From NCBI RefSeq assembly GCF_018156225.1, contig NZ_JAGTAR010000016.1:1-64000 (forward strand): a stretch of DNA of 64,000 nt. The letters run 5' to 3'. Made by a program: the position numbers and the translations under genes. Of the stretch, positions 153 through 60,706 are shown piece after piece (position 1 is the first letter of the stretch; every line of letters begins with the position of its first letter). Source of the stretch: Carboxylicivirga sediminis (lineage in GTDB: Bacteria > Bacteroidota > Bacteroidia > Bacteroidales > Marinilabiliaceae). Under the pieces are notes generated by a model, which was not told the DNA's origin, made no database searches, and worked only from the letters and a program-made list of their open reading frames with translations.

Positions 153-187
153 AAAAAGTCTGATCAAATCAATTGATCAGACTTTTT
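153..187 (+). terminator. Rho-independent type terminator
   Basis: A perfect 15-bp stem (153-167 with 173-187) encloses a 5-base loop. The 3' arm ends in a run of five T. It lies directly after the partial sulfatase, and its A/T-rich stem base would also allow termination from the other strand. Confidence 0.85.
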
Positions 188-263
188 ATTTGAAATAGAA
201 TGGATATGGCAGTTTAGCACTCATTCGTAATCGTTGATGAGTAGAAAAATAAAAATCTGTTAA

Positions 264-312
264 TAATCGTTCGATATGTGGTCAGCTACGTGATAAGACG
301 AGTGTATCTTCG
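264..312 (+). promoter_or_regulatory. Candidate regulated promoter of the sulfatase operon at 334
   Basis: TATCTTCG at 305-312 matches the Bacteroidota -7 consensus TAnnTTTG with one mismatch and lies 21 bases before the start codon. An ATGTG element begins at 276, exactly 29 bases before the TA. The same spacing occurs before the SusC operon and before the gene at 52517. TAATCGTT at 264-271 is also found upstream of the latter. The 12-mer at 274-285 (ATATGTGGTCAG) recurs at 5379-5390. Motif and spacing are seen in the sequence; regulator binding is inferred. Confidence 0.5.
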
Positions 313-333
313 AACAATTAATTATCGATACAA

Positions 334-1794
334 ATGAAGAATTTAGTATTAATATTCACCTTAGTAGTGGCATGTACCTGTCAAGTGTATGCCAAGAGTA
401 ATAATAAGCGACGACCAAATCTGGTAATCATCCACACCGATGAGCATAACCTGCGTACATTAGGTTGTTACCGCGAAACCATGAGTGATGAACAAGCTTT
501 GATGTGGGGCCAAAAGACCATTGTTGAAACACCAAACTTGGATAAAATTGCCAGTGAGGGTGTATTATGCGAAAACTGGTACGCTACATCACCGGTTTGC
601 ACGCCATCCCGGGCTTCAATGATAAGTGGACTATATCCGATTGCGACTGGTTCACACCAAAATGATCTGCCTTTACATGATAACCTGATTTCTTTCGCTC
701 AAATTCTGAAGGATAATGGCTATGCTACATCATATGTTGGTAAGTGGCACCTCGATGGTGAAGATAAACCTGGTTTTGCCCCAAAGCGTCAGTTTGGTTT
801 TGCTGATAATCGTTACATGTTTAACCGGGGACACTGGAAGGCATTGGCAGAAGATGAAAAAGGATTACGCGTAGACCAGGCTATTACAAAAAAGGGAGTG
901 GCTTTCGATGTAGAAAAGGTTACTGAAGAGTCTTTCACAACTGATTTCCTTATTGATCGCTCCTTGGAAATTATCAAACGAGATATGGATCAACCCTTTG
1001 CTTTGATGCTATCCATCCCAGATCCGCATGGACCTAATCAGGTAAGAGCACCCTATGACACTATGTTTGATCATATGCACTTCGAAGATCCACGAACCAT
1101 GCATCCTGATCCGGAAATGTCGCCGAAGTGGTTGAATTTACAAGGGAAAAAGAATCGGGCATTGTCATTAAAGCAAGACCAAATGGCTGATTACTTTGGC
1201 ATGGTAAAATGCATTGATGACAATGTAGGACGCATACTCAATTTTTTGGAAATGGAAGGATTGAGTGAAAATACCATCGTTGTTTTTACATCCGATCATG
1301 GCGACCTGATGGGCGAGCACGGTAAGCATAATAAAGGCTTACCATATGAGATGTCGGCTCGTGTACCATTCTTACTTAAATATCCAGACCAGGTGATAGC
1401 TGGAAAGCAAATTCAAAAAGCATTCACAATGGCAGATTTTACACCAACAATTCTTGGTTTAATGAATGTGGATCATTCTGCCTATAATTTTCATGGTGAG
1501 GATTTGTCCACAGATTTTACCAACAAAGCCAAGGTTCTGACAGATGATCGCATTGTTTATATCACTAATGCTTTTGGTCGCTGGGTGGCAGCAGTCAATA
1601 ATCGTTATAAGTTAGTATTATCACCAACAGATGAGCCTTGGTTATTCGATTTGAAAAAAGACCCGGATGAGTTAGTTAATTTTTATGAACAGCCCGAATA
1701 TAAGGAGATTGGGGAGCGATTGAAGAATGAATTATACAAGCAAATGGAGGACTTTGATGAGCCATTATTAAATGAAGGGACCATTATTCAATAG
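334..1794 (+). CDS. Family S1 sulfatase, exported
   Basis: Hydrolyses a sulfate ester, probably on a seaweed glycan, in the periplasm. The 486-residue protein begins with a signal peptide ending near residue 20 (ACTCQVYA). The formylglycine motif CTPSR starts at Cys89, so the enzyme needs Cys-type maturation. Other S1 signatures are visible: the N-terminal metal site appears as TDEHN rather than the commoner ADD form, GKWHLDG follows near residue 137, and TSDHGDLMGEHG near residue 327 is the second metal-binding segment. Length fits a single-domain sulfatase. The TDEHN and 'DPHGP' text recall subfamilies annotated as arylsulfatase A-like, but the substrate is not deducible. It is the first gene after a terminator and a candidate regulated promoter, and it is followed 139 bases later by a second sulfatase. 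Confidence 0.93.
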   Translation: MKNLVLIFTLVVACTCQVYAKSNNKRRPNLVIIHTDEHNLRTLGCYRETMSDEQALMWGQKTIVETPNLDKIASEGVLCENWYATSPVCTPSRASMISGLYPIATGSHQNDLPLHDNLISFAQILKDNGYATSYVGKWHLDGEDKPGFAPKRQFGFADNRYMFNRGHWKALAEDEKGLRVDQAITKKGVAFDVEKVTEESFTTDFLIDRSLEIIKRDMDQPFALMLSIPDPHGPNQVRAPYDTMFDHMHFEDPRTMHPDPEMSPKWLNLQGKKNRALSLKQDQMADYFGMVKCIDDNVGRILNFLEMEGLSENTIVVFTSDHGDLMGEHGKHNKGLPYEMSARVPFLLKYPDQVIAGKQIQKAFTMADFTPTILGLMNVDHSAYNFHGEDLSTDFTNKAKVLTDDRIVYITNAFGRWVAAVNNRYKLVLSPTDEPWLFDLKKDPDELVNFYEQPEYKEIGERLKNELYKQMEDFDEPLLNEGTIIQ

Positions 1795-5370: not shown

Positions 5371-5439
5371 ATGTGGCAATATGTGGTCAGTATTGGATAA
5401 TTAATGAAGAATTATAGTATTGGCCTCCCCCTATATTTG
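5371..5439 (+). promoter_or_regulatory. Distal ATGTGG direct repeat and candidate -7 element upstream of SusC
   Basis: ATGTGG occurs at 5371 and again at 5381, exactly one helical turn apart. The second copy sits in a 12-mer (5379-5390) identical to 274-285 upstream of the first complete sulfatase. A perfect TAnnTTTG match, TATATTTG, lies at 5432-5439, 51 bases after the second copy, but no -33 TTG is properly spaced. The rest of 5185-5630 is AT-rich non-coding sequence with no convincing gene on either strand. Confidence 0.35.
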
Positions 5440-5636
5440 AAATGTAAATAACTGTTAAAAACTCATGCTAAAACATCAGTTTTCTTGATAGTATATCGAC
5501 AATTTTATATATAAAATTAGCATTGTATCACAGGGTTTGAAATTTTCTAATAGATTGAAAAGCAGTGCTTGAAGTTGTTTTTTGACGCAAAACCAACAAA
5601 TATTAACAAATAATGGACATGTCTTAATTATTGTCA

Positions 5637-5687
5637 ATGTAAATGTGAAAATGTGTTAATGTAATATGTGTTGTAGAGGTAGTTTTG
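5637..5687 (+). promoter_or_regulatory. Candidate regulated promoter of the SusCD operon with ATGT(G) array
   Basis: ATGT repeats start at 5637, 5643, 5651, 5659 and 5666, giving an array with 6-8 base spacing. ATGTGTTAATGT at 5651-5662 is identical to 52464-52475. A perfect -7 element TAGTTTTG lies at 5680-5687, 29 bases after 5651, the same distance as at the other site. The usual -33 TTG is replaced by TTA inside the repeat, which fits an activator-dependent promoter. Predicted transcription would start near 5694 and leave a leader of about 66 bases. Confidence 0.55.
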
Positions 5688-40301: not shown

Positions 40302-42035
40302 ATGAGAAAGAGTTTAATCATAAGTTTGATTTTTATTGTTACAGGAACTTTATATGCTCAAATAAAGCCGGATACCATTGCGGCTTATAAAACTATCAAT
40401 GGAACTGAGCTAAATATGCATATTTTCTTCCCCACTGGTCACCAAATGGATGAAGCTAAACCTGCCATTGTGTTTTTTCATGGAGGAGGGTTTAAACAAG
40501 GAAGTCCTGATCATTTTTACGGGCAATGTCGCTACCTGGCTTCACGGGGCATGGTAGCCATGAGTGCGCAGTACCGGACAGAAAAGAGCAACGGCACAAC
40601 TCCTGTAGAATGCATCAAAGACGGTAAGTCGGCCATGAGATGGGTGCATGTTAATGCGGAGAAATATGGTATAGATCCACAAAAAATACTTGCCGGAGGA
40701 GGTTCTGCCGGTGGACATATAGCAGCATCAACAGCAGTTTTGTCGGGTTTTAATGAATCGGGAGAAGACTCAACCATCTCGTGTCAGCCAAAGGCCCTGG
40801 TGTTGTTTAATCCGGTGCTGAATAACGGACCGGATGGATATGGATATGAAAGGGTTGGTGAATTTTATAAGCATTTCTCACCCCACCATAACCTGAGTGA
40901 ATCAGCACCACCTACATTAATCATGTTGGGAACAGAGGACAGACTCTTTACGCCAGACATGGCAAAGGCGTATAAAACAAAGATGGAGCATCTGGGGCAA
41001 CGCTGCGATTTACTGCTGTATGAAGGTCAGGGACATGCCTTTTTTAATAGAGGACAAAGTGAAGAAATGTACTATCAGACCATGATAGATGCCGATGAGT
41101 TTCTGATTTCGTTAGGCTACTTAAACGGCCAACCTGCTACCATACAATCGATCAACGAAGTCCATTTCAAGAAAAAAGGCAATCCTTTTGTGAAGCATCT
41201 TTATACAGCAGATCCATCCGCACATGTGTTTAACGATAGATTGTATGTATACACCTCTCACGATGAGGATACAGCCACCTATTTTAACATGATTGATTGG
41301 CACGTGTTTTCAACGGATAACCTGATTGACTGGACTGACCATGGAGCTATTTTGAGTTTAAAAGATATAGACTGGGCTAATAAATGGGCCTGGGCACCCG
41401 ATTGTGTGGAGCAAAACGGCAAATACTACTTCTATTATCCGGTGGAGCGTGCCAAAATTGGCGTGGCAGTGAGTGATACCCCAACTGGCCCTTTTGTGGA
41501 TGAGTTGGGAGAGCCATTGATTGATAATACCGGGCAGATAGAGCACATTGGCAAAGAACCCATTGATCCCTCTGTATTAATTGAGAAAGGGCAGGCATAC
41601 CTGTACTTTGGCTGCCGCGAACCCAAGGTGGTGAAACTCAAAAATAACATGATGGCCTTAAAGGGTGATGTGCAAGACTTAAAGATTAAGGGTATTGAAG
41701 GTGACAAGGAACATTTTGGAGGTTTTTATGGTGAAGCGCCTTGGGTGTTTAAACGTAACGATACCTTCTATCTGTTATATTCCAATGGTTGGGGGAAGAC
41801 CAGTACCCTGGTATATGCCACCAGTAAGAATCCCATGGGACCTTTTACGTTTCAGGGTGAAGTAATGGATGTGGTGAGCTCCTGGACCTCCCATGGTTCC
41901 ATTGTGCAATTTAAAGGACGATGGTATGTTTTTTACCACAACATGGACTTATCCAACAACAACTACCGACGCTCAGTTTGCTTTGACGAGCTCACTTTTG
42001 ACGAGAACGGAAAAATTAACAAACTGAAATTGTAA
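40302..42035 (+). CDS. Two-domain enzyme: alpha/beta-hydrolase esterase plus GH43 glycosidase
   Basis: A 577-residue fusion with signal peptide (GTLYA). Residues about 25-275 are an alpha/beta-hydrolase of the carbohydrate-esterase type. Oxyanion HGGGF is followed by nucleophile Ser135 in GGGSAGGH, Asp213 in GTEDRLF and His245 in GQGHAFF. Residues about 290-577 are a GH43 beta-propeller: base Asp304 in TADPSAHVF, pKa-modulating Asp367 in WAPDCVE and acid Glu478 in GEAPWVF. DPSAHVFNDRLYVYTSHDED is a common start of arabinofuranosidase or xylosidase-like GH43 members. The two activities would deacylate and then release a sugar from the same residue. Its stop overlaps the next start by one base (TAATG). 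Confidence 0.9.
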   Translation: MRKSLIISLIFIVTGTLYAQIKPDTIAAYKTINGTELNMHIFFPTGHQMDEAKPAIVFFHGGGFKQGSPDHFYGQCRYLASRGMVAMSAQYRTEKSNGTTPVECIKDGKSAMRWVHVNAEKYGIDPQKILAGGGSAGGHIAASTAVLSGFNESGEDSTISCQPKALVLFNPVLNNGPDGYGYERVGEFYKHFSPHHNLSESAPPTLIMLGTEDRLFTPDMAKAYKTKMEHLGQRCDLLLYEGQGHAFFNRGQSEEMYYQTMIDADEFLISLGYLNGQPATIQSINEVHFKKKGNPFVKHLYTADPSAHVFNDRLYVYTSHDEDTATYFNMIDWHVFSTDNLIDWTDHGAILSLKDIDWANKWAWAPDCVEQNGKYYFYYPVERAKIGVAVSDTPTGPFVDELGEPLIDNTGQIEHIGKEPIDPSVLIEKGQAYLYFGCREPKVVKLKNNMMALKGDVQDLKIKGIEGDKEHFGGFYGEAPWVFKRNDTFYLLYSNGWGKTSTLVYATSKNPMGPFTFQGEVMDVVSSWTSHGSIVQFKGRWYVFYHNMDLSNNNYRRSVCFDELTFDENGKINKLKL

Positions 42036-45000
42036 TGATGCGAATATTTCTACCTATTTGTATGTTGTTGTTGACGGGTGCAATCGTTGCACAAACTAGC
42101 AGTGCTTTTCAGCCATTTAACACACAAGGTGATAATTTAATACATATTGCAACGGCTGATTTTGATGAGGTAGGAGCTAAAGATCATCTGGTGGCAATGA
42201 CAGTTGAAGGCAAGGTAATTGCATTTAAGCGTGTTGACCAGATAACAGAACCTTCTGCCGACAATCGCTTATGGGAATATGATGCTTTGCCTTCAATGGG
42301 ATTAAGAGTTGTTGCCGGTGATGTAACAGACGCTAGCTCTGGCGATGAAATTCTTTTGCCGGGCACCGACGGTCATATCAGAGTCCTGTCATCAAGCGGT
42401 GAGCTGTTAATTGATAAAGAGGTAAGCACAGGTGCTTTATACTCGGCAACGGTGGCTAAAGGCACAGGCGGCCAAACGGTAATTGTTACTTCAGGAGTTG
42501 ATGGCATGGTTTATATTCTGAACAATGACGGTGTGTTGCTTAAAACCTTCCGTCCTGAAACAGGGAAAGCAGGTGGTGTGTCTGGCTTAGTTCGTCATGT
42601 GGCGGCCGGTGATTTTGATGGAAACGGAACCGATGAAGTAGTTGCTTTTGTCAATCGCAAGAGTTTTGAAGGCAATAATTTTATTGACATCATCGACCTG
42701 GCTACATATGAACGACCGGTATACTGGAATGGTGATGCCGATCCTGTAGCTGATAATGTGGTGTCAGGCCTAGGCTTTACCGATAAACAGTTGCCTCGCG
42801 TATTTGATGTGGATGGTGATGGCAGTCCGGAGCTGGTAGCGCATTGGGGTGTTTTTCATCCGGAAGATGGACCACGGACCAAGTTGTTTTCAAGCATGTT
42901 AGCCGATACAGAGAAACTGGCGCTTGGTAATTATAGAAGCTACGCCAAGACTTATCTGATTCAAAATCATGGCTTTCAGGATTCAGATAAAGAAGATTTA
43001 ACAGCTACAGGCAAATACCTGATGCAGCATGGTGTTCCCGGTGATTTTGATGGCGACGGTAAAGCGGAAGTCTTCACCATATATGGCGATGACTTATTTC
43101 TTTCGCAGTATGATGCCTCAACTAAATCTCTCGCTATATCTGATTATACCTGGGCGCATTGTACGTATCATTTTTCAGATGGTGCTTGTTTGGAGAATAG
43201 AAATGGTGGGGCTGATAAAATGGTTCTGTCCGGCCCTATCAATGGAGATGATCATTTTTACGTGGTGGATTTCTCAAACCCGAATTGGAAAATTCAAGCA
43301 CGAACAATAAACGGTTTAGGTAAATTGGGTGAGGTAGACCGGAATTTAGACCAACTGACAGATCAGATTGATCAGTTTGCTGGAACGCTGGCCGTTGGCG
43401 AACAACCTATTTGGTACCTCGATTATTTTGCCAGTGGCTTATGGTGGGAGATGACGCCAGAAAATAGCGCTGTACAGGCACAAAAGGTGTATGATGCACA
43501 GCAAGAGTGGTACGATAAAATTGGGGGGCAGGAAAACTATCGTTCAACAAAAATACGCCTGGCAGCCAGTGTCAATTCCTGTATTTACGGAATGGCTACC
43601 GAATGCGATAAAGAAACTGTCACTGCTGAAGGGGTTAAGAATTTTTGTGCAGCCCTGGCTCAAAAAGGGGCTTATTTCTGCCTGAAAATAGGGCATGGAC
43701 CTCATATTTTCATCACCCCGGAAGACTTAGCAGATTGTTATGAGGCATCAGTTGTTGATGGCGAATGTTACATGATGGCGCGCACGCGTGAATTAAACGA
43801 ACATGTTGATTTTGAATCTTATATTCCTCACCTTGATGCTTTATTGGCTCGTGCTGAACAAATAGGTGCAGTACCTCCAATGGTGATGCTATGTGCAAAG
43901 GGTGCAACGTTTACCGCTTTATCACAAAATCAGGCTGATAGCTATTTTCCAAAGTATAAAGATATACTGGTTCCTGGTGTCGAAAATTCAAATGTGACCG
44001 AATTGGACATTAGTCTGGCCGAGCGCGTTGGTTTATGGATGAATGGCGATGTGGAGACCTGGGGGTGTAACGTGATCGGTGATAACCTGTCGGCTAACCG
44101 CGTGGCAGAATGGGGGGGCATGCGTAATGCCCATGTTGTATTAAGACAGATGTTGTCGCAGTATAGCCTGGGAGCCAAAGTGTTTAGAGTAACTTCCATT
44201 ACGGCACTCAATAATCCGTTATACGAACGTGGTGATGTCAGCGGCGCAGACCAGCAATGGACACAGGTCTTTCAGAAAGGAATTTTAAATTTTCTGAAGC
44301 TGGTAGACAAAGGGATTTATCCGAATTCACCTGATGTTGACCAAATAAAAGGTATTTCTCCGGTATCGGTAGGCATTTATAATCGAAGTAACCGTCTCAC
44401 CGAGCAAAGCATTAATCACGATCATTACTTGTATCAGCCCGAAACCGATAACTACGTATTCAACCGATTGGCCTGCTGGAATGCCTATACTGATATTCCG
44501 GAAACTGATGCAACCGCCTACCTGTATGGAACAAAACGTCGCTGGGAAAATATGTTTCCTACTATGACCGGAGGGTTTGTAACCATTGTGCCTTCCACTC
44601 AGGCCTCTGAAATTGAAGCCAATTCATGGTGTAATGCTGCTTATCAAACCAATGGAGATACCTGGAACGATATGTCACTGTATGAAGCCAAAGAAACGAT
44701 AAGTACTGAAGTGCTGTCTCAGCTTAATAACCTTGATTTTTATGTGGAGGGAGATTGCTTTTGGCAGTTCACGCAACAAAAGGATGATCCTTATACTTAC
44801 TTTGCCTTTCTAATGGATAATCACGAATTATCGCCTGTGGAGCGCACTGTGAAATTAAAGGCTGGCACTTCCATCAATGGCGAGTGTCAGGTCTTTGATC
44901 AGTTGGGTGGTTCTGACGTGATTGGAACTATATCATCGTCTGCAGATGAGCTAAGTATCACAATCCCGGCCGGATCAGCCCGATTCTTAACGATTCAGTT

Positions 45001-45286
45001 AAGCGAATTACCAAATGAAGATGTTGGCATTAACAGGGTCGAAGCAGAGTTGATAAAGGTGTATCCAAATCCTGCCAATAAATTGGTAAATGTGGAAATG
45101 AAAGACTTTGCCGGGAGTAAGGCGGATGTGGCCATTTATAATGCAACTGGATCTAAGATACAGCAATTAGAGCTAGTGAGCGCGCATCAGCAGATTCCGG
45201 TAAATAGCTGGTCAACGGGAATATATGTTATGCACATTATGCAAGGCAACAAATTCCAGCTGGCCAAATTGGTAATATGTGATTGA
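42035..45286 (+). CDS. Large beta-propeller protein with unknown catalytic region and type IX tail
   Basis: A 1083-residue secreted protein. After a signal peptide (GAIVA) the N-terminal third forms a propeller with Ca-binding FG-GAP-like repeats: DFDGNGTDE from Asp193, DVDGDGSPE from Asp258 and DFDGDGKAE from Asp337. The region from about 470 to 990 is rich in Trp and acids (WGCNVIGDN, AEWGGMRNAHVVLRQM, GIYPNSPDVDQIKGISPVSV) and looks enzymatic, but its family was not recognised with certainty. Residues about 1008-1083 (VYPNPANKL to KLVICD) are a type IX sorting domain. A beta-propeller joined to an unusual catalytic region is the published layout of lambda-carrageenase (GH150). That is offered as a hypothesis only. 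It is translationally coupled to the preceding gene. Confidence 0.72.
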   Translation: MMRIFLPICMLLLTGAIVAQTSSAFQPFNTQGDNLIHIATADFDEVGAKDHLVAMTVEGKVIAFKRVDQITEPSADNRLWEYDALPSMGLRVVAGDVTDASSGDEILLPGTDGHIRVLSSSGELLIDKEVSTGALYSATVAKGTGGQTVIVTSGVDGMVYILNNDGVLLKTFRPETGKAGGVSGLVRHVAAGDFDGNGTDEVVAFVNRKSFEGNNFIDIIDLATYERPVYWNGDADPVADNVVSGLGFTDKQLPRVFDVDGDGSPELVAHWGVFHPEDGPRTKLFSSMLADTEKLALGNYRSYAKTYLIQNHGFQDSDKEDLTATGKYLMQHGVPGDFDGDGKAEVFTIYGDDLFLSQYDASTKSLAISDYTWAHCTYHFSDGACLENRNGGADKMVLSGPINGDDHFYVVDFSNPNWKIQARTINGLGKLGEVDRNLDQLTDQIDQFAGTLAVGEQPIWYLDYFASGLWWEMTPENSAVQAQKVYDAQQEWYDKIGGQENYRSTKIRLAASVNSCIYGMATECDKETVTAEGVKNFCAALAQKGAYFCLKIGHGPHIFITPEDLADCYEASVVDGECYMMARTRELNEHVDFESYIPHLDALLARAEQIGAVPPMVMLCAKGATFTALSQNQADSYFPKYKDILVPGVENSNVTELDISLAERVGLWMNGDVETWGCNVIGDNLSANRVAEWGGMRNAHVVLRQMLSQYSLGAKVFRVTSITALNNPLYERGDVSGADQQWTQVFQKGILNFLKLVDKGIYPNSPDVDQIKGISPVSVGIYNRSNRLTEQSINHDHYLYQPETDNYVFNRLACWNAYTDIPETDATAYLYGTKRRWENMFPTMTGGFVTIVPSTQASEIEANSWCNAAYQTNGDTWNDMSLYEAKETISTEVLSQLNNLDFYVEGDCFWQFTQQKDDPYTYFAFLMDNHELSPVERTVKLKAGTSINGECQVFDQLGGSDVIGTISSSADELSITIPAGSARFLTIQLSELPNEDVGINRVEAELIKVYPNPANKLVNVEMKDFAGSKADVAIYNATGSKIQQLELVSAHQQIPVNSWSTGIYVMHIMQGNKFQLAKLVICD

Positions 45287-52211: not shown

Positions 52212-52448
52212 TATAGCAGTTTCTTTAAATTGGAATAGCGCTTAAAGACCCCTGCAGAGTGATTCAGTTTAAATGATTAATTCTTGTTCTGCCGAATTTT
52301 AATTCTGATTTTAAGCCCAGCGGAAATTGCAATATGAGTCGTGTTTTATTTGTCGTAACTTCTGAATGATGATGCATATTTGTGTCTTAGTGTTTGTAAA
52401 TGTGATGATTGGGTTTGTGTAGTGGGCTTGATGTTTGCATAAATTTGC
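52212..52448. other. Non-coding stretch upstream of the 52517 promoter
   Basis: AT-rich sequence with no supported gene on either strand. TAAATTTG at 52440-52447 matches the -7 consensus by sequence and has a TTG at 52415, but the promoter at 52493 fits better. Nothing else distinctive is seen. Confidence 0.4.
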
Positions 52449-52500
52449 TAATCGTTGTCAGATATGTGTTAATGTGTATTGTTGGAGATGGATATTTTTG
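52449..52500 (+). promoter_or_regulatory. Candidate regulated promoter of the 52517 beta-helix gene
   Basis: TAATCGTT at 52449-52456 is shared with 264-271. ATGTGTTAATGT at 52464-52475 is identical to 5651-5662 before the SusC operon. A perfect -7 element TATTTTTG lies at 52493-52500, 29 bases after the ATGTG start, the same as at both other sites. A short leader of about 10 bases would precede ATG 52517. Confidence 0.55.
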
Positions 52501-52516
52501 TGACAAAACATATAAG

Positions 52517-54841
52517 ATGATGAAAGGTATATTCATATTGGCAGGCTTAACTTTTTGTTTAGCCTTAACAGCCCAAACAGTGGTATGGCAAGCCCAAGCC
52601 GAAGATGGAACATTGAGCGGAGCAGCTGAGGTTGTTGAAGGCTGTGCCAATGCGTCGGGTGGTTTCTTTGTTAAATTGTCCAATAAAGCCAGTAATACCC
52701 TTAGCTTTAATAATATTGAGATAAGCAAAGCAGGTAACTACAAACTATCGGTTTATCATTTTAATGCTAGTCCTGTGGATCTAGTAATAGAGGTGAATGG
52801 TGTTTCGCTGGGAACAAAAGAGTTTCCGGCGGGTGTCTGGTGTTATCAGGGGAGTGCCATCGAAACAGTTTTTGATGTTGAGCTTTCAGTGGGTACAAAT
52901 TCCATATTGCTCAGCCCCGAGGAAGGTCTTGGGTCGCCATTGCTTGACAAGTTAGTGCTCATTGATGAGTCTGGCGACCTTAAGCCACAGAAGTACTATG
53001 TAAGTAGCTCTTTCGGAAACGACACTAATGCAGGAACATCGCCGGAAAATCCATGGGCCAGTCTGGCACGTGCCAGTGATCAACTCTTAAACCCGGGTGA
53101 TTCGGTTCTGTTTAAATCCGGCGATACTTTTATTGGTCAGTTGCAAATCAATCACTCCGGAACAAAAGATATGCCATTATATTTTGGAAAATATGGTGAA
53201 GGAGATTTGCCTGTCCTGGACGGTGCATTAGCCGAAGGTGGTGCACATTTAACAACGGTTGCAATCACCAATCAGGATAATATTGAATTGGCGTTTCTCG
53301 AAATTACCAATGATCGTCAGACCTCTCGTGCCGGTGTGTCTGATAACCTGGCCTATGGTATTGATGTTCAGAATACAGGTCCTGATACGCTACGAAATTA
53401 TCATTTTCATGATCTGACCGTTCGTGATATTTTTGCGCCAACTACAGAAAATCAGGATTTTAACGCTATAAAAGTTTCGGCTATTAACTTTTTCACAAGC
53501 AAAAATACCGAAGTAGGTAAAGAACGTAATATTCAGGATGTTTTGGTTGAGAATTGTTATATAGCCCGCACTACCCGTTTAGGCATAAAAACCGGTCATG
53601 CCGGAGGAGATGAAGGTGTAGGGAATGATTCTATCAACCGAAATATGAACCTGGTGTTTCGCAACAATCATTTCTACCAAACAGGCGGAACTTGTATTCT
53701 TCCTACCAAAACCTATAACTGCCTAATAGAACACAATATTTTTGAAGAGCCAGGGTCAGATGCCGATCCAAGAATGGCCAACCGGGGGAGTAGTGTTTGG
53801 TTCTTCAGTAGTCGCAATGGGATCTCTCAATATAACAAATGCTATAGTGTTCGTGGCTATGCCGATTCCTATAGTCAGCACATCGATTTTGGAAATCGCA
53901 ACATCATCATACAATATAATTATAGCGAGGATAGTGAAGGTGGTTTTGTGGAAATATTGGGAGAAAATGTGAATTCAACCTACCGTTTTAATGTCAGTGT
54001 GAATGATGGTTTTCGAGATTTTAAAGGGAATACCTTATGGGTATCGGCTTATGCCGGTAAAGATCGTGACATTTTATCCGATAGTAGCTTTATCTATAAT
54101 AATTCGGTATATGTGGATGCGGCCATTACACCGGATATCTCCTTTGTAGGAAAAAACATATTCGTTTATAATAATATTTTTCAAGCTACCGGAGCTGCTA
54201 CTATCGGACAGGAGGTAACAATGGAAATTGAGCCAGGCAGCCAGTTGTACATGTCAAATAACCTATATTACGGCAACATTACTAGTACATTTAAAAATTA
54301 TGATAGTAGTCCTGTAAATGGCAATCCATTATATGTGAATGGAGGTGGTTTAACAACTGAAGACTATAGAGTTACTGATGATAGTCCGGCTATTAATGCA
54401 GGGAAACAATTTCCTGAACCTGTTTTTCCAATGGCCGGCAAGGGAATTTTCAAGGATATTGCAATCACACCCAATGTAGATATGTTTGGCAATCCGGTTG
54501 GCGTATCAGATTCAGTCCCTAATATAGGTGCCGATAATCGAAATAATTCCTATGTGGGCATACATGATCTTGAGTTAGTTATTGAAGAGTCGATGACTAT
54601 CTATCCCAATCCTGTAAAGGATCAGGTGATGGTAACTGTGCATGGCGTAAAAAAAGGAAAAGTATCGCTTGTTTTGTCTGATATAAAAGGAACCTTGTTA
54701 CAGCAAAAAGAAATGGATATAAACCCTAATTTTAACCAACTGAAGATGACTATTAATCCTGATTTGCGCAATGGAATTTATATCTTAAGTATCGAGGAAA
54801 AAGGTAAGTATGTCAGCAAAAAAGTAGTGATCTACCGATAA
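52517..54841 (+). CDS. Parallel beta-helix protein with N-terminal binding domain and type IX tail
   Basis: A 774-residue secreted protein. The start at 52517 (or the adjacent 52520) begins the signal peptide FILAGLTFCLALTAQ; the upstream extension would run through the promoter. Residues about 20-155 resemble a CBM6/35-type jelly roll (WQAQAEDGTLSGAAEV, LSVYHFNASPVDLVIEVNGV, LLDKLVLIDES). The beta-helix follows from KYYVSSSFGNDTNAGTS, with the set's core at His455 (HIDFGNRN, QYNYSEDSEGGFVEILGE, YNVSVNDGFR). The last 80 residues are a type IX sorting domain (TIYPNPVKDQVM to KKVVIYR). It is the most elaborate of the four paralogues and lies just upstream of the regulator, under a promoter matching that of the SusC operon. 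Confidence 0.85.
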   Translation: MMKGIFILAGLTFCLALTAQTVVWQAQAEDGTLSGAAEVVEGCANASGGFFVKLSNKASNTLSFNNIEISKAGNYKLSVYHFNASPVDLVIEVNGVSLGTKEFPAGVWCYQGSAIETVFDVELSVGTNSILLSPEEGLGSPLLDKLVLIDESGDLKPQKYYVSSSFGNDTNAGTSPENPWASLARASDQLLNPGDSVLFKSGDTFIGQLQINHSGTKDMPLYFGKYGEGDLPVLDGALAEGGAHLTTVAITNQDNIELAFLEITNDRQTSRAGVSDNLAYGIDVQNTGPDTLRNYHFHDLTVRDIFAPTTENQDFNAIKVSAINFFTSKNTEVGKERNIQDVLVENCYIARTTRLGIKTGHAGGDEGVGNDSINRNMNLVFRNNHFYQTGGTCILPTKTYNCLIEHNIFEEPGSDADPRMANRGSSVWFFSSRNGISQYNKCYSVRGYADSYSQHIDFGNRNIIIQYNYSEDSEGGFVEILGENVNSTYRFNVSVNDGFRDFKGNTLWVSAYAGKDRDILSDSSFIYNNSVYVDAAITPDISFVGKNIFVYNNIFQATGAATIGQEVTMEIEPGSQLYMSNNLYYGNITSTFKNYDSSPVNGNPLYVNGGGLTTEDYRVTDDSPAINAGKQFPEPVFPMAGKGIFKDIAITPNVDMFGNPVGVSDSVPNIGADNRNNSYVGIHDLELVIEESMTIYPNPVKDQVMVTVHGVKKGKVSLVLSDIKGTLLQQKEMDINPNFNQLKMTINPDLRNGIYILSIEEKGKYVSKKVVIYR

Positions 54842-54909
54842 GATGACCCAATAGCCACCTACCTGACTTTTTAAGTTCAATTATCTTTTAAAAATGGTAT
54901 TTTTGAATT

Positions 54910-57900
54910 ATGAGTAAAGGGAAAAAGTGTTTTTACATAGTAAGTTTAGGCTTATTACTTATAGGTTTTTTATCTAAAGCCAATGAAAATGTTCGCTTCG
55001 AACACCTGGCTTTGCCACCTGGCATTAATTCTACCGTAAAATGCCTGATAGAAGATTCAGAAGGTTTTATGTGGTTTGGCACTTCCAATGGATTGGCCAT
55101 GTATGATGCCTATTACCTAAGGCAGGTTGATTTAGTATCTGATGGAATACCAGGGGCATTTGGCTCCATAAATGCTCTGGCTGAAGATAAGATGCAGCAA
55201 ATATGGATTGGAACTGAAAATGGTGTTTTTATATACAATAAAACCACAGAAACTTCAAAACGAATTGATGATGAATACCTAAGGGGAGTTCAGTGTCGCA
55301 CTATCCATATTGGATTGAATGATGAGATTTTTATCGGCACAGCAGCTGGTTTTTTTATTTACGATCACGAAGGGAGGTATCAGGAGCGTTATCTTCACCA
55401 GGCTGAAATGGGAAGTGGTTTAAGTCATAATATGGTACGTTGCTTTTATGAAGATAAAGATCAGCGTATATGGATCGGAACCTTTGATGGATTGAATTGC
55501 CTGGACAGGAAGAAGAAAGAAGTAAAGAAATACAGATTGCAGCCTGAATCAAGTTTAAAAAATAACAACTTGATCTTAAGTATTCAACCGCGTTATCAGG
55601 ATTCGGATAGTATATTATTGGTTGGAACCGAAACAGGTTTATGTGTTTTCAATACTGTAACTGGTGAGTATTCAAACTTCCGGCATGTTAAAGGCAAAAA
55701 ATCCCTTAGTAATGATGTGATCAAGTCAATCTGCGTAGATGGAGCCAATGTGTGGATGGGAACTGATCTGGGCCTGAATCTGTTTAATACAATTGAAGAG
55801 CGGTTTTATAATTATTTCCACGACTATAGAAATACCTTTTCAATAGCAAATAACGTCATTCACCAGGTATTTGTCGATCGACAGAAAAACCTATGGCTGG
55901 CAACTGACAATGGAATTGATAAGATGTACCTGCGCAGTAGTAAGGTGTTGCTCAATAGGTTTTATGAGTCGTCGAAAGTGCTGGAAGGAGAATTAAATGT
56001 CACAGGCTTATGTGGCACAAGGAATGGAGATGTATGGTTAGCTACCAGGGAAGGTTTGATTCAGTATAATAAAGAACATAATGAATATCAAAAATACTTG
56101 CCTCCCAAATTACTACACAATAAAATTAGTGATGTGCTTTGTGACAATAACGGGATGTTTTGGATATCAACTCCAGGAGGTTTAAATACTTATAATAGTC
56201 ATACCGCTGACTTTAAAAGTTATGAGGCTGATGTTTATAATGATTACGCGCTAAAAACAAATTATATTCATGTTCTTGCTCAAAGTAGTTCCGCAATATG
56301 GATCGGTTCATACGATAAAGGTCTGCATAAGGTGGTAAAAGATGGGAAAGGGCAACTGAAATTCCATAATTTCCGTCACGAGTCTGACAACAGAAACTCT
56401 ATCAATTCGGACAGGGTAACTGATGTAATTGCAGATCAAAAAGATAATATATGGATATCAACTAGTAAGGGACTTAATAAAATAGATGAATTAAGAGGTG
56501 TAGTTGAACGTTTAAAAGTTATCCCTAATGCGAATAATCAGTATGTAGGTGATTTGTTTATTGATAAAAGTAATACACTCTGGATTGCTACATATCACGG
56601 TTTGTTTTATACTGACACCGATGAGGTAAGGTTTAAAAGAGTTGAAGAGATTACATTTGATATTCAATCTGTAGCAGTTGTGGGATCAGGAGTGTACTTG
56701 ATTTCAAATAATGTCTTCTACTTCTTTGATCTATCAAGTCGCGAACTTTTGCGCATTCCCAATGCAGATTTAGGCCTTAGATCAATTTTAAATGTAGAAA
56801 TCCTCGAGGATGATAAACTTGTCCTTTATGGGAAAGAGGGATTTGTGACTTTCAATATGAATGATGTTGAAATTGACACAAATATCCCTAAAGTCAACTG
56901 GACCAACTTCTCAATACTAAGTGAAGATATTAAACCTTTCAGAATGCGTGATGACCGATACGTGATCAATCGTCGTATCAATGAAATGGAGAATATTGAG
57001 CTGAAATACAGTGAGAATACATTCCGTTTAGATTTTTCTTCATTGCAATATAGCCATGGTAAAGATTGTAGTTATATGTTTTTGCTAGATGGTTATGATA
57101 AAGAATGGCGAACGACCTTGCCAAATCAGGCCTATGTGTCATATACACAGGTGCGCCCAGGTAAATACACTTTGAAAGTAAAAGCATCAAATAAATATGG
57201 ATTATTCAATGATGAATGGCGTGAAATAGCTATTAGGATCAAACCTCCTTTATACTTGTCTTTGTGGGCAATAATATTCTATGTTGTTGTTCTAGTTATG
57301 TTGTTTGTCATATCCAGGAAGTTGCTTATAGCTAGGGAAAAAGCGAACAGTGATATTCGATTCCAAACGATGCAGCGCCAAAAAAGTGAAGAACTGGTAG
57401 AAATAAAAACACGATTTTTTACCAATATCTCACATGAACTAAAAACGCCACTAACACTTATCAGTAGCCCGGTAGATGACTTGTTAGCATCGGAGCCTGA
57501 TGAACCGATCAAATCGTCATTAATGTTGGTTAAGCGAAATACCGACAGGCTTAAGAATCTGGTCAACCAAATACTTGATATTCGTAAGATAGAAAGGGGA
57601 GGAGAGAAGTTATCCGTTCAGGAGTACGATATTATTCGTTTTTGCGATCGTGTTATTGGTCAGTTTAAAGAGGAAGCTGAGCGACGTAATATGCTGCTGC
57701 AATACAATACCAGCGAATCATCATTAATGATGTGGTTCGATATGGAGAAACTGGAAAAAGTATTGGTCAATTTACTTTCCAATGCCTTTAAGTTTACGCC
57801 TGATGGCGGATTTATCCGAATTGAAGTGAAGGATGCAAGGAAGCTGGCAGGCAAATTGAATGAAGTGCAGATCGCCATCACCGATGATGGCTGTGGCATC

Positions 57901-58956
57901 AGTAAACATGCTCAATCTGATGTTTTTGATCGATTCAATACTCAGGCTTCACCCAATTACAGTAATCAACAAGGTACAGGTATTGGCTTGTCACTGGTAA
58001 AAGAGTATGTTACTATGCACGGTGGACAAATCAAGCTTGAAAGTGAACCGGATAGTGGTAGTTGTTTCTCTTTTTCCATTCCTCTCGATAGAAATAAATT
58101 TGATAAGTATGAAGAGCAAATTGAGTTAATAGAAGCAGAAGCGGAAGAGGTTGAAGCTAAACAGAACGCCTCCGAAGAGATCGCTAAAGTTAACCTGGAG
58201 CAGGAAAGTGGAAAAATACTTATCCTTGTGGTTGAGGATGATAATGATATGCGCGAGTATATTATTTCCGGTTTAAAGAAGCATTATAAGGTAATCTCGG
58301 CCGAAAATGGTGTTCAGGGGCAAAAGTTGGCTGTCAAAGAGGTGCCTGACATCATTATTTCTGATTGGATGATGCCCCAAATGAACGGCATTGAATTGTG
58401 CAATAAGGTTAAAAATGACCTCAGAACTTGCCATATTCCCCTTATCTTGTTAACAGCAAAAGGTGGATTGGAAAGTAAAACTGAAGGTATTGAAACAGGT
58501 GCAGATGACTATATTCAAAAGCCATTCAGTATGGCTTATTTGCAGGTACGTATCAAGAATCTGTGGCAACAGCGAGAACGACTTAAGAAGGTCTATCAAA
58601 AACAAACCAACCTGGAGCCTTCAGAGGTAACGGTAACATCGTTGGATGAAAAATTCCTGTCAGATCTGATGAACTTGCTCGAGAAAGATATGGATAACCC
58701 TGAACTCAATGTTAAAACAATGAGTGAAATGATGGGAATGAGTCACACTAATCTTTATCGTAAAATCAAGGCGCTGACAGGACAAACTGCTACAGAATTT
58801 ATTCGTACCATCAGACTGAAAAGAGCAGCCCAGCTTCTTAAAGCAGGTCAGTTAAATGTGAGTGAAGTGATGTATATGGTTGGTTTTTCGCACCGTTCCT
58901 ATTTTACACAAAGCTTCAAAGCCATGTATGGCGTATCGCCAAAAGAATATAAGTAA
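54910..58956 (+). CDS. Hybrid two-component system regulator (HTCS)
   Basis: A 1348-residue inner-membrane sensor and transcription regulator that usually controls a PUL in response to imported oligosaccharide. Domain order: signal peptide (about residues 1-24), periplasmic propeller of Reg_prop repeats (about 30-700; MWFGTSNGL, IWIGTENGV, LWLATDNGI and similar), Y_Y_Y domain (about 705-775), transmembrane helix (about 782-805), histidine kinase with phospho-acceptor His842 in NISHELKTPL, ATPase domain (LLSNAFKFTPDGG), receiver domain with Asp1152 in ISDWMMPQMNG, and a C-terminal AraC-type helix-turn-helix (about 1245-1348, VSEVMYMVGFSHRSYFTQSFK). It is the only regulator in the window. Binding to the ATGTG promoters is inferred. 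Confidence 0.96.
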   Translation: MSKGKKCFYIVSLGLLLIGFLSKANENVRFEHLALPPGINSTVKCLIEDSEGFMWFGTSNGLAMYDAYYLRQVDLVSDGIPGAFGSINALAEDKMQQIWIGTENGVFIYNKTTETSKRIDDEYLRGVQCRTIHIGLNDEIFIGTAAGFFIYDHEGRYQERYLHQAEMGSGLSHNMVRCFYEDKDQRIWIGTFDGLNCLDRKKKEVKKYRLQPESSLKNNNLILSIQPRYQDSDSILLVGTETGLCVFNTVTGEYSNFRHVKGKKSLSNDVIKSICVDGANVWMGTDLGLNLFNTIEERFYNYFHDYRNTFSIANNVIHQVFVDRQKNLWLATDNGIDKMYLRSSKVLLNRFYESSKVLEGELNVTGLCGTRNGDVWLATREGLIQYNKEHNEYQKYLPPKLLHNKISDVLCDNNGMFWISTPGGLNTYNSHTADFKSYEADVYNDYALKTNYIHVLAQSSSAIWIGSYDKGLHKVVKDGKGQLKFHNFRHESDNRNSINSDRVTDVIADQKDNIWISTSKGLNKIDELRGVVERLKVIPNANNQYVGDLFIDKSNTLWIATYHGLFYTDTDEVRFKRVEEITFDIQSVAVVGSGVYLISNNVFYFFDLSSRELLRIPNADLGLRSILNVEILEDDKLVLYGKEGFVTFNMNDVEIDTNIPKVNWTNFSILSEDIKPFRMRDDRYVINRRINEMENIELKYSENTFRLDFSSLQYSHGKDCSYMFLLDGYDKEWRTTLPNQAYVSYTQVRPGKYTLKVKASNKYGLFNDEWREIAIRIKPPLYLSLWAIIFYVVVLVMLFVISRKLLIAREKANSDIRFQTMQRQKSEELVEIKTRFFTNISHELKTPLTLISSPVDDLLASEPDEPIKSSLMLVKRNTDRLKNLVNQILDIRKIERGGEKLSVQEYDIIRFCDRVIGQFKEEAERRNMLLQYNTSESSLMMWFDMEKLEKVLVNLLSNAFKFTPDGGFIRIEVKDARKLAGKLNEVQIAITDDGCGISKHAQSDVFDRFNTQASPNYSNQQGTGIGLSLVKEYVTMHGGQIKLESEPDSGSCFSFSIPLDRNKFDKYEEQIELIEAEAEEVEAKQNASEEIAKVNLEQESGKILILVVEDDNDMREYIISGLKKHYKVISAENGVQGQKLAVKEVPDIIISDWMMPQMNGIELCNKVKNDLRTCHIPLILLTAKGGLESKTEGIETGADDYIQKPFSMAYLQVRIKNLWQQRERLKKVYQKQTNLEPSEVTVTSLDEKFLSDLMNLLEKDMDNPELNVKTMSEMMGMSHTNLYRKIKALTGQTATEFIRTIRLKRAAQLLKAGQLNVSEVMYMVGFSHRSYFTQSFKAMYGVSPKEYK

Positions 58957-59031: not shown

Positions 59032-60468
59032 TTATCTAATAAGCATTTTACGAGTGCAGGTTTGTCTATTGGCAATGAGCTTAACCAATACGATGCCTTT
59101 TATATCAGATGGTAATACAATGCTGTTTGTTCCGGCAACCAGCTGGCTCGAATAGAGCTTTTGGCCACTTAATGCAAACACTTCAAGCAAACTGTTGTCT
59201 GAATTGGCGATTTTTACTTTAAATGCACCATTATTTGGATTAGGAGTTATCGATACTTCCATTGCTTCTCTTTGAATAGTTGTTGCAGTCGTATATTCAA
59301 AGGAACCCATATCCGGTGCGCTGCCGCGATTGGTATCTTGCATATCGGTCGATTCAGCCGTTGAAACATCAGCTGCATCAATAGCAATACTGCCTGCAAG
59401 CAACGGTAAGGTATAAACGCCATTTGCGCCTTTTGTGAATGTACCAAAGCTAATGGCGGCTTCTGTGGCGTTTTCTCCGGCGATGCAGTCTGTTCCAATA
59501 GCAGTTGCATAGGCATTAGATATGATATTGTGATGATTGATGCCTCTTTCGGTTATTTCAAATACTTTCGAATCAGTACCACCAACATCAAGACCTGTGC
59601 CCCATTTATTTTCTAGTGAATTAAACAGGATAGAGTTGGTGAGGGTAAGTGATTTCCCTCTTATAAAACGAATACCTACAGCCATTGGGTTATTTGCCGG
59701 ATTTATAATTTTCGTATAAGCCAGCGTTGAGCTGTTCATTGTAATTGTGCCCCTAGTGGCATCTGCATTTTCAGAAAAGATAGCGGCTCCTTGATCCTTG
59801 TTTGATCCGGTTACAGAATTGTTGTAAATAACAGAATTACTGATCGTGATATCATTGAGCTGGCTATCATTAGAAGATTGTCCAAATATAGCAGCACCTT
59901 TTAAACCACCAGATACGTTATTGGCAATACAGCTGTTGGTGATGTTTATGCTGCCCCATGATATAATAGCTGCACCATTTGCACCCGAATAACAATTTAA
60001 TAGGTTACAGTGATCTATAGTGATCGATTGTCCTGCATAAACGGCAATAGCTCCACCCGCCGTGGTACTGTTTCCATATCTGAGAGTCATGTTTTTAATA
60101 GTTACTTCGGCTGATGCTCCAAGACTTATTATTCGCTTATTTGATTCTGCACCTGTACCAATATAATCAGGTTCGTTAGCCTGAGCCTGAATGATCACAG
60201 CATTGGCATCGTTATCCACACCTTTAATGGTAATGCTTTTATTAATCAAGATATTAGGGTGTGTATATGTACCAGCAGCCACTTTTATCAGATCATTATC
60301 CGATGACTGATCAACTGCGTGGTAGATAGTGGCAAAAGCTGAGGATTCGCTTTGACCGTCATTACCATTGTCTCCACTTGCACCATTAACATACCACGTT
60401 GTTTGGGCAAGAGAAACGGTGCTTGCTGCAAAAAAAAGAGATAGGAGTAAAAGTTGAAATTGTTTCAT
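59032..60468 (-). CDS. Secreted beta-helix protein with type IX tail, minus strand
   Basis: A 478-residue protein and the only convincing minus-strand gene. The signal peptide ends near residue 21 (TVSLA). The mature start TTWYVNGASGDNGNDGQ and the following AFATIYHAVDQSS, IKVAAGTYTH match DUF1565-like beta-helix proteins. Repeated strands such as ITIDHCNLLNCYSG, INITNSCIANN and LTLTNSILFNS give a right-handed parallel helix. The C-terminal part (VSITPNPNNGAF to RKMLIR) is a type IX sorting domain. It lacks the HIDF...GGF...NDG core of the other four, so it belongs to a different beta-helix group and may be a surface adhesin-like protein rather than an enzyme. It is convergent with the regulator. 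Confidence 0.8.
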   Translation of the reverse strand: MKQFQLLLLSLFFAASTVSLAQTTWYVNGASGDNGNDGQSESSAFATIYHAVDQSSDNDLIKVAAGTYTHPNILINKSITIKGVDNDANAVIIQAQANEPDYIGTGAESNKRIISLGASAEVTIKNMTLRYGNSTTAGGAIAVYAGQSITIDHCNLLNCYSGANGAAIISWGSINITNSCIANNVSGGLKGAAIFGQSSNDSQLNDITISNSVIYNNSVTGSNKDQGAAIFSENADATRGTITMNSSTLAYTKIINPANNPMAVGIRFIRGKSLTLTNSILFNSLENKWGTGLDVGGTDSKVFEITERGINHHNIISNAYATAIGTDCIAGENATEAAISFGTFTKGANGVYTLPLLAGSIAIDAADVSTAESTDMQDTNRGSAPDMGSFEYTTATTIQREAMEVSITPNPNNGAFKVKIANSDNSLLEVFALSGQKLYSSQLVAGTNSIVLPSDIKGIVLVKLIANRQTCTRKMLIR

Positions 60469-60602
60469 AAAGATTGAATTAAGTTAAACTAATTAAATTT
60501 TTTGAGTGATCGTAAATATGCGATCGTATACTTTAAAAATAACTAACTATCAGAAGGTAGGTGTTTTGTATGTTGCTTATAATTAGCGCATAATGCAATT
60601 GA

Positions 60603-60656
60603 GTAACACAAATACGACAAGATGTAACACATATATAGCATGATGCCTATGTGTTA
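60603..60656. promoter_or_regulatory. Inverted TAACACATA / TATGTGTTA operator candidate
   Basis: TAACACATA (60625-60633) and TATGTGTTA (60648-60656) are perfect 9-bp inverted arms with a 14-base spacer. A further half site, GTAACACA, lies at 60603-60610. The TATGTGTTA arm is identical to 52463-52471 upstream of the beta-helix gene. It lies in the divergent region between 60468 and 60731. Direct GATCGTA repeats also occur at 60508 and 60522. Confidence 0.45.
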
Positions 60657-60698
60657 TTAATAGACCTTTATATGAAAAGCTAAACAATAGCAAGTCTG

Positions 60699-60706
60699 TA
60701 TGTTTG
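60699..60706 (+). promoter_or_regulatory. Candidate -7 element before the small membrane peptide
   Basis: TATGTTTG is a perfect TAnnTTTG match located 25 bases before the ATG at 60731. The TATGTGTTA arm upstream lies 50 bases away, close to the 51-base distance in the distal SusC region. No TTG at -33 is visible. Confidence 0.4.

What the first reader, a model, noticed from the sequence alone, without database searches (positions are those of the whole stretch)
5637..5687. Shared ATGTG element at a fixed 29-base distance from the -7 box in three promoters
Before the SusC operon (5651 to 5680), before the gene at 52517 (52464 to 52493) and before the sulfatase at 334 (276 to 305), ATGTG starts exactly 29 bases upstream of a TAnnTTTG element (one mismatch in the last). 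In the first two the 12-mer ATGTGTTAATGT is identical, and the -33 TTG is replaced by TTA inside it. This fits an activator binding a direct repeat that overlaps the -33 region. The only regulator in the window is the AraC-type HTCS at 54910, so it is the first candidate.
Basis: partly seen in the sequence, partly recalled or inferred. Interest (0 to 1): 0.72.

Follow-up and report, generated by a model that had tools for sequence, protein, structure and literature searches.

The report
Seaweed-sugar sensor's shared binding site
Several promoters of a marine bacterium's carrageenan-digesting gene cluster carry the same repeated DNA landing site at a fixed distance from the start box, most likely for the cluster's own membrane sugar sensor; this is a new example of a known kind of switch rather than a new mechanism.

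Summary
In detail: ATGTG lies 29 nt before TAnnTTTG at 5651, 52464 and, with one mismatch, 276. It is more than chance, but the short motif is only part of the element. Orthologous promoters keep a direct repeat, TGYYA...TGTTAA, 21 bp apart (22 at susC), with its distal TG 47-48 nt before the -7 box and its proximal half over the -33 region. ATGTGTTAAT-N19-TAnnTTTG occurs 8 times in 14 genomes, each time before susC or gene 52517. A model built without one promoter ranks that promoter first of 127,860 positions, in each of three cases. It also points to two weaker elements back to back at 60600-60706. The geometry matches direct repeats predicted for Bacteroides HTCS regulators, so the HTCS at 54910 is the best candidate. 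Binding and transcript starts are untested. The HTCS is not the locus's only regulator: an AraC-type regulator beside dauA-like genes goes with a different element (TGGTCAkTnnTrGATAA, 48 nt before the -7 box) that also lies upstream of susC at 5384. The susC operon therefore probably has two promoters answering to two regulators.

The parts
5632..5661 (+). HTCS-type operator of susC promoter P1: direct repeat TGTCAAT ...
   Evidence: 27-28 of 30 positions kept in G005 and G006 against 0.49-0.50 in the rest of the upstream region; ranks 1 of 127,860 when held out
5680..5687 (+). -7 box TAGTTTTG of susC promoter P1
   Evidence: 8 of 8 positions kept in G005 and G006, at the same distance
5374..5400 (+). 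AraC-type element of a second susC promoter, P2: TGGCAATATGTGGTCAGTATTGGATAA
   Evidence: 23 of 27 kept in G005 and in G006; the element, with 0-2 mismatches to its consensus, lies 48 nt before a -7 box upstream of the ALDH gene next to an AraC regulator in 5 of 6 genomes
5432..5439 (+). -7 box TATATTTG of susC promoter P2
   Evidence: TAnnTTTG 48 nt after TGGTCA in the own, G005 and G006 copies; 7 of 8 letters kept
258..287 (+). HTCS-type operator before the sulfatase at 334: TGTTAAT ... TGGTCAG
   Evidence: TGTTA at -47 and TGTG at -28 present without gaps in 6 of 6 orthologous promoters, own and Labilibacter included; 19-24 of 30 kept in G006, G005 and Labilibacter against 0.42-0.48
305..312 (+). 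-7 box TATCTTCG
   Evidence: 6-7 of 8 positions kept in G005, G006 and Labilibacter
52446..52475 (+). HTCS-type operator before gene 52517: TGCTAAT ... TGTTAAT (21 bp apart)
   Evidence: 26 of 30 kept in G005 (rest 0.47), 20 of 30 in C. marina (rest 0.35); ranks 1 of 127,860 when held out
52493..52500 (+). -7 box TATTTTTG
   Evidence: 8 of 8 in G005, 6 of 8 in C. marina
60652..60681 (+). proposed further HTCS-type operator before gene 60856 (good distal half TGTTA, poor proximal half)
   Evidence: model not trained on it: rank 4 of 127,860 with the box (11 without); G005 3 (15), Labilibacter 1 (7) in their loci; 26 and 23 of 30 kept there, but 16 of 30 in C. marina, no better than its surroundings (0.56)
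60699..60706 (+). -7 box TATGTTTG, 47 nt after the distal TG
   Evidence: 8 of 8 kept in G005 and Labilibacter, 7 of 8 in C. marina
60600..60629 (-). proposed further HTCS-type operator on the - strand before gene 59032-60468: TGTTACATCTTGTCGTATTTGTGTTA; no good -7 box at the usual distance
   Evidence: orthologues rank 2 (G005), 2 (C. marina) and 1 (Labilibacter) without the box; the own copy ranks 13 of 127,860 without the box and 314 with it
54910..58956 (+). HTCS: Reg_prop propeller, Y_Y_Y, HisKA, HATPase_c, receiver, AraC-type HTH; proposed activator
   Evidence: Pfam; orthologues 76-98% identical in 5 other genomes
58597..58953 (+). HTCS C-terminal region with the DNA-binding domain
   Evidence: 93-100% identical in the 5 orthologues; 71% in the paralogue whose locus gave no site over 16
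334..1794 (+). sulfatase gene (proposed target)
   Evidence: PF00884
5760..8795 (+). SusC gene, first of the susCD operon (proposed target)
   Evidence: Plug and TonB-dependent receptor domains
52517..54841 (+). secreted protein with a type IX sorting tail; 68 bp before the HTCS gene on the same strand (proposed target)
   Evidence: PF18962; gap read
59032..60468 (-). gene without Pfam match (possible target)
60856..62349 (+). gene without Pfam match (possible target)
42035..45286 (+). lambda-carrageenase-like gene that marks the substrate class of the locus
   Evidence: PF25290 and PF25292

Best explanation
The element is the operator of the locus's own hybrid two-component regulator (HTCS, 54910-58956). 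The HTCS probably senses a carrageenan-type oligosaccharide in the periplasm. Once its receiver domain is phosphorylated, two AraC-type domains bind two half-sites (TGYYA...) lying in the same orientation 21-22 bp apart, on one face of the helix. The proximal half covers the place of the -33 box, which is missing, so the bound regulator would stand in for it and recruit RNA polymerase to the TAnnTTTG box 47-48 nt after the distal half. This would switch on the sulfatase at 334, the susCD operon from P1, gene 52517 with the HTCS gene behind it (positive feedback) and possibly the divergent genes at 59032 and 60856. A separate AraC-type regulator of the same locus acts at a second promoter, P2, of the susC operon. 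Shown: the sequences, their conservation, fixed spacing and confinement. Inferred: who binds, activation, signals and transcript starts.
For: Half-sites and -7 box are kept at exact spacing; the spacer letters are mostly not (6-9 of 17-18 at susC, gene 52517 and the sulfatase in G005 and G006). Held-out promoters rank first, 3 of 3, with the box; 1, 1 and 5 without. Two further elements just downstream of the HTCS gene found by a model not trained on them. ATGTGTTAAT-N19-TAnnTTTG: 8 of 8 hits in 14 genomes at these promoters, in 5 of 6 genomes with the HTCS orthologue and 0 of 8 without. TGYYAAT-N14/15-TGTTAAT: 6 hits in the own genome, control 0, 2 of them here. HTCS DNA-binding region 93-100% identical in the orthologues. 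No site over score 16 in the locus of a 56% paralogue (156,000 positions), 1 in unrelated loci (869,612 positions). The 21-bp direct repeat is the reported HTCS motif geometry (PMC3878776, passages). HTCS receiver-DNA-binding proteins bind susCD-type promoters in gel shifts, depending on phosphorylation (PMC11253607, passages). The rival regulator goes with a different element.
Against: No binding or transcript data. Co-occurrence of HTCS and element does not separate the HTCS from the rest of the locus. The proximal half is weak before 334 (TGGTCAG) and 60856 (TATGAAAA). The - strand element at 60629 has no good -7 box at the usual place, and the own copy ranks only 13 (no box) or 314 (box). 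In C. marina the 60.6-kb pair is kept no better than its surroundings (18 and 16 of 30 against 0.56). In Labilibacter the sulfatase spacer is kept too (14 of 17), so that comparison says less. Spacing is 22 at susC and 21 elsewhere, and the model's columns were chosen after seeing all three promoters; an earlier model missed the sulfatase promoter when it was held out. A second, 66% identical susC of G006 and the 50% susC of Labilibacter lack a clear element. Labilibacter, which has the HTCS (78%), has no exact ATGTGTTAAT-N19 hit. Only about four independent lineages were compared: own, G011 and G012 are nearly identical here, and G006 is C. marina.
Confidence: 0.77

Rival explanations
1. The AraC-type regulator of the locus (own contig C83, CgrA-like) binds the ATGTG element and the HTCS acts elsewhere.
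For: It is AraC-type too; it lies about 31 kb upstream of the sulfatase on one contig in G011; the 276 site shares ATATGTGGTCAG with the AraC-type element at 5379.
Against: The gene next to this regulator carries a different element, TGGTYAkTnTTrGATAA or close to it, with another spacing (48 nt), in 5 of 6 genomes. TGGTCA is not kept in the sulfatase promoter of Labilibacter, G006 or G005, whereas TGTTA and TGTG are. The HTCS-type model scores at most 16.3 in the own C83 stretch.
Confidence: 0.12
2. ATGTG-N24-TAnnTTTG is simply a housekeeping promoter sequence or a chance likeness in AT-rich DNA.
For: With one mismatch the pattern is at chance level in the window.
Against: 6 exact hits in 5.8 Mb; the longer form occurs only at these promoters in the 14 genomes searched; the susC element is kept at 27-28 of 30 against 0.49-0.50 around it.
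Confidence: 0.04
3. A global regulator (for example the Crp-like BT4338/Cur) binds the element.
For: Global regulators of carbohydrate use act on many such loci in Bacteroides (recalled); BT4338 sites within PUL22 are mentioned in PMC11501099 (passages).
Against: The long form of the element is confined to this locus in the 14 genomes searched. The BT4338 consensus quoted in PMC11501099 is a palindrome (wwwTATGTTnTAnAACATAwww), whereas this is a direct repeat.
Confidence: 0.05

Closest known systems
Predicted HTCS operators of Bacteroides thetaiotaomicron (16 regulons, PMC3878776)
   Same: Direct repeat of two conserved sites, on average 21 bp apart; upstream of susCD and enzyme operons of the HTCS's own locus; kept in genomes with the orthologous HTCS
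   Different: Other letters as far as I can tell (its motif files were not seen), a marine genus and a carrageenan-type substrate; here the distance to the -7 box is fixed (47-48 nt) over several promoters, a point the passages seen do not discuss
Carrageenan regulon of Zobellia galactanivorans with cgrA (AraC family) and dauABCD (PMC5698469)
   Same: AraC-type regulator with an ALDH, an enolase-type dehydratase, a sugar kinase, a KDPG-type aldolase and a sugar/H+ symporter (gene list from passages)
   Different: Here the locus also holds susCD pairs, an HTCS and a lambda-carrageenase-like gene, and the AraC-type element also precedes susC; the Zobellia operator was not compared
Sigma-ABfr promoter of Bacteroidetes (-7 TAnnTTTG, -33 TTTG; PMC7366714)
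   Same: -7 box TAnnTTTG
   Different: No TTG 17-23 nt before the -7 box at the four + strand HTCS-type promoters; the proximal half-site lies there

Membership tests
HTCS operator (Bacteroidetes) | two conserved sites in direct orientation, about 21 bp apart | tested here: met
   21 bp at 258, 52446 and 60629(-), 22 bp at 5632; weak second half at 258 and 60652
HTCS operator (Bacteroidetes) | the locus encodes an HTCS with periplasmic sensor, kinase, receiver and AraC-type HTH | tested here: met
   Reg_prop, Y_Y_Y, HisKA, HATPase_c, Response_reg, HTH_18 at 54910-58956
HTCS operator (Bacteroidetes) | sites kept before orthologous genes in genomes with the orthologous HTCS | tested here: met
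   own genome counted: susC 5 of 5 genomes with a susC over 85% identical, sulfatase 6 of 6, gene 52517 5 of 5 (no orthologue was found in the Labilibacter stretch); weaker for the 60.6-kb pair
HTCS operator (Bacteroidetes) | the HTCS binds the site and induces the gene | not testable with these tools
   needs gel shift, footprint and expression data
sigma-ABfr promoter | -7 box TAnnTTTG | tested here: met
   exact at 5680, 52493, 60699 and 5432; one mismatch at 305; not found for the - strand element at 60629
sigma-ABfr promoter | -33 box TTTG | tested here: not met
   read by eye: no TTG 17-23 nt before the boxes at 305, 5680, 52493 and 60699
AraC/CgrA-type regulation of dau genes (for P2 at 5384) | AraC-family regulator adjacent to D-anhydrogalactose genes | tested here: inconclusive
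   Pfam order AraC, Aldedh, RhaT-like, MR_MLE, GH2, rhamnosidase-like, KDPG aldolase, PfkB on own C83 fits, but Pfam families do not show the substrate
AraC/CgrA-type regulation of dau genes (for P2 at 5384) | same operator as Zobellia cgrA | not tested
   the Zobellia sequence was not fetched; the passages seen give no operator

The most novel reading that the evidence does not exclude
The susC operon is a two-input gate: P1 answers to the HTCS (periplasmic oligosaccharide) and P2, about 250 nt upstream, to a CgrA-like AraC regulator (cytoplasmic monosaccharide such as 3,6-anhydro-D-galactose). Import would then be started by one breakdown product and sustained by another. HTCS activation would also follow a fixed docking rule (distal half 47-48 nt before the -7 box) that could be used to predict HTCS regulons in other Bacteroidota.
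Probability: 0.4. Interest if true: 0.62.

Novelty: new member of a known kind. Interest (0 to 1): 0.45.

Why it matters
Many HTCS regulators have no known operator; for 20 of 36 in B. thetaiotaomicron none could be predicted in PMC3878776 (passages). Here a marine one gets a conserved candidate operator, a small regulon and exact promoter geometry, so that binding and activation can be tested on defined fragments. The second susC promoter suggests that oligosaccharide sensing and monosaccharide sensing meet at one importer operon.

Tried and rejected
The loose one-mismatch pattern as evidence: rejected, at chance level. The 276 site as an AraC-type site because of TGTGGTCAG...GATAA: rejected, because TGGTCA is not kept and its distance to the -7 box is 26, not 48. 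A first model did not recover the 276 promoter when held out; the later one, with its orthologues, other columns and other pseudocounts, did. Both are told because the result depends on the model. A look for the same geometry before 30 of 89 TonB-receptor (Plug) genes of the genome gave only a list of sites and led nowhere. The hits at G003:C75 (inside a long ORF) and at G002 and G004 were not taken as sites; L102 (G004) was not looked at further. Of the 6 own-genome hits, the four outside the window were not examined for context. Positions scoring 16-20 in the relatives' loci, other than those discussed, were not examined; one in the window (3969, - strand, 17.9) lies in a gene. Of 31 complete window genes, 29 were scanned with Pfam; 31915-32466 and 51700-52155 were not, nor was the gene cut by the window's end. 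PMC12125979 (passages) concerns a Vibrio regulator and was set aside.

Full report
Setting. The window is the first 64 kb of contig C41 of a 5.8-Mb draft genome. Its HTCS is 98% identical to those of Carboxylicivirga mesophila and of an uncultured Carboxylicivirga, and 76-84% identical to those of C. marina, a second uncultured Carboxylicivirga and Labilibacter sediminis. By matching coordinates and identities G011 is C. mesophila, G012 and G005 the two uncultured ones, G006 (and G061) C. marina and G060 Labilibacter. The locus holds eight Pfam sulfatases, GH2, GH116, fucosidase-type and GH43 enzymes, a lambda-carrageenase-like protein, SusC/SusD pairs and the HTCS. It is therefore a polysaccharide utilization locus for a sulfated galactan of the carrageenan type; the substrate is inferred from the enzymes.

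Check of the observation. With one mismatch the pattern is at chance level: 4 hits against 3.15 expected. Exact ATGTG-N24-TAnnTTTG occurs 6 times in the genome, with 1 hit for the reversed control. Two of the six lie in this 64 kb (1.1% of the genome), and by the ORF tables these two are the only ones just before a same-strand gene: of the other four, one is inside another HTCS gene, one inside a coding region, one between genes of the other strand and one at the end of a gene. The longer ATGTGTTAAT-N19-TAnnTTTG was searched in 14 genomes: 8 hits, each before a susC or gene 52517 orthologue, control 0. Hits were in 5 of the 6 genomes with the HTCS orthologue (not Labilibacter) and in 0 of the 8 without.

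What is conserved. Alignment of orthologous upstream regions shows blocks of high identity in diverged surroundings. At susC, 27-28 of 30 positions of the element and 8 of 8 of the -7 box are kept in G005 and G006, but 8-9 of 18 in the spacer between them and 0.49-0.50 elsewhere; the spacer length is exact. A second susC of G006, 66% identical, lacks it, and none is clear before the 50% susC of Labilibacter. At gene 52517, 26 of 30 (G005) and 20 of 30 (C. marina) are kept against 0.47 and 0.35. At the sulfatase, TGTTA at -47 and TGTG at -28 are present without a gap in 6 of 6 genomes, own and Labilibacter included; identity over the element is 19-24 of 30 against 0.42-0.48, and in Labilibacter the spacer is kept too (14 of 17). 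The common core is TGYYA and, 21 bp on (22 at susC), TGTTAA or a weaker likeness, with the distal TG 47 nt (48 at susC) before the -7 box.

Statistics. A weight model from ten aligned sites (three promoters with orthologues) was tested by leaving out each promoter with its orthologues: each held-out promoter ranked 1 of 127,860 window positions when the -7 box was included, and 1, 1 and 5 (sulfatase) without it. The columns were chosen after all three had been seen, and an earlier model failed to recover the sulfatase promoter. The model scored nothing over 16 in the locus of an HTCS paralogue (56%, 156,000 positions) and one position over 16 in 869,612 of unrelated loci. It pointed to two further elements that it was not trained on, back to back between the divergent genes 59032 and 60856. 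The + strand one (60652, -7 box TATGTTTG at 60699) ranks 4, 3 and 1 with the box, and 11, 15 and 7 without, in own, G005 and Labilibacter. The - strand one (60629) ranks 2, 2 and 1 without the box in G005, C. marina and Labilibacter, but 13 in the window, and 314 there with the box, because no good -7 box is at the usual place. In G005 and Labilibacter 23-26 of 30 positions of each are kept against 0.65 and 0.50; in C. marina 18 and 16 of 30 against 0.56, no clear excess. I therefore call this pair proposed.

Which regulator. Predicted HTCS motifs in B. thetaiotaomicron are direct repeats with an average distance of 21 bp (PMC3878776, passages). HTCS receiver-DNA-binding proteins bind promoters of susCD operons in gel shifts, depending on phosphorylation (PMC11253607, passages), and ChIP-seq with a chimeric sensor placed the BT0366 regulatory part at its locus (PMC3404733, passages). 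The HTCS here has an AraC-type domain, lies 68 bp behind gene 52517, and its DNA-binding region is 93-100% identical in the orthologues and 71% in the paralogue. This makes it the best candidate; no result here shows binding.

A second regulator and a second susC promoter. A block at 5374-5400 (TGGCAATATGTGGTCAGTATTGGATAA), with 48 nt from TGGTCA to TATATTTG at 5432, is also kept in G005 and G006 (23 of 27 each). An element with 0-2 mismatches to its consensus lies at the same distance from a -7 box before an ALDH gene next to an AraC-type regulator in own C83, G011, G012, G006 and Labilibacter, and was not found in G005 (5 of 6). In G011 this regulator and the sulfatase lie on one contig, about 31 kb apart, so own C83 is probably the missing upstream part of the locus. 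Its gene order (AraC, ALDH, RhaT-like symporter, MR_MLE, GH2, rhamnosidase-like, aldolase, PfkB kinase) resembles the cgrA-dauABCD cluster of Zobellia, where deletion of the AraC gene delays growth on carrageenan and D-anhydrogalactose induces part of the cluster (PMC5698469, passages). The susC operon thus seems to have two promoters with different activator sites.

Mechanism. The best reading is an HTCS dimer on two half-sites of one DNA face, the proximal one in place of the missing -33 box, activating promoters of the sigma-ABfr type (-7 and -33 boxes described in PMC7366714, passages). The gene 52517 operator would also raise the HTCS itself, unless the HTCS has its own start (a TATTTTTG box at 54898). 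Steps shown: sequence, spacing, conservation, confinement. Steps inferred: binding, activation, signals.

Known or new. Direct-repeat HTCS operators are a known kind. The searches listed no paper, by title and start of abstract, on an HTCS operator for a carrageenan locus or for Carboxylicivirga. They cover an open-licence library only, and three lists were capped (20 of 45 papers, 20 of 51, 12 of 95). I file it as a new member of a known kind, with the two-promoter arrangement as the most interesting part.

Noticed in passing
window 5374-5439: Second conserved promoter-like element of the susC operon (AraC-type site plus TATATTTG box), of the same type as before the ALDH gene next to an AraC regulator in five genomes.
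   Followed up: yes
own contig C83 (L138 1261-19002): Probable upstream part of the same locus, cut off by the contig end: AraC regulator, dau-like genes, GH2, rhamnosidase-like enzyme, sulfatase.
   Followed up: partly
window 54898-54905: An exact TAnnTTTG box (TATTTTTG) ends 5 nt before the HTCS start codon, which could give a leaderless HTCS transcript of its own.
   Followed up: no
L011 9755 (+): In Labilibacter a weaker HTCS-type match (score 16.9) lies about 220 nt before the HTCS open frame, where no gene 52517 orthologue was found; it could be a self-regulating site.
   Followed up: no
window 60600-60706: Two HTCS-type elements back to back between divergent genes; the - strand one has both halves but no good -7 box.
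   Followed up: partly
window 156-188: Inverted repeat followed by a T run (AAAAAGTCTGATCAA...TTGATCAGACTTTTT) before the sulfatase promoter, probably a terminator of the preceding gene.
   Followed up: no
window 39874-39885 (-): Third exact copy of the 12-mer ATGTGTTAATGT, inside a gene; probably chance.
   Followed up: no
L073 (G012:C1:256165-260184): HTCS paralogue (56%, DNA-binding region 71%) in another locus that gave no model hit over 16: a natural control for specificity.
   Followed up: partly
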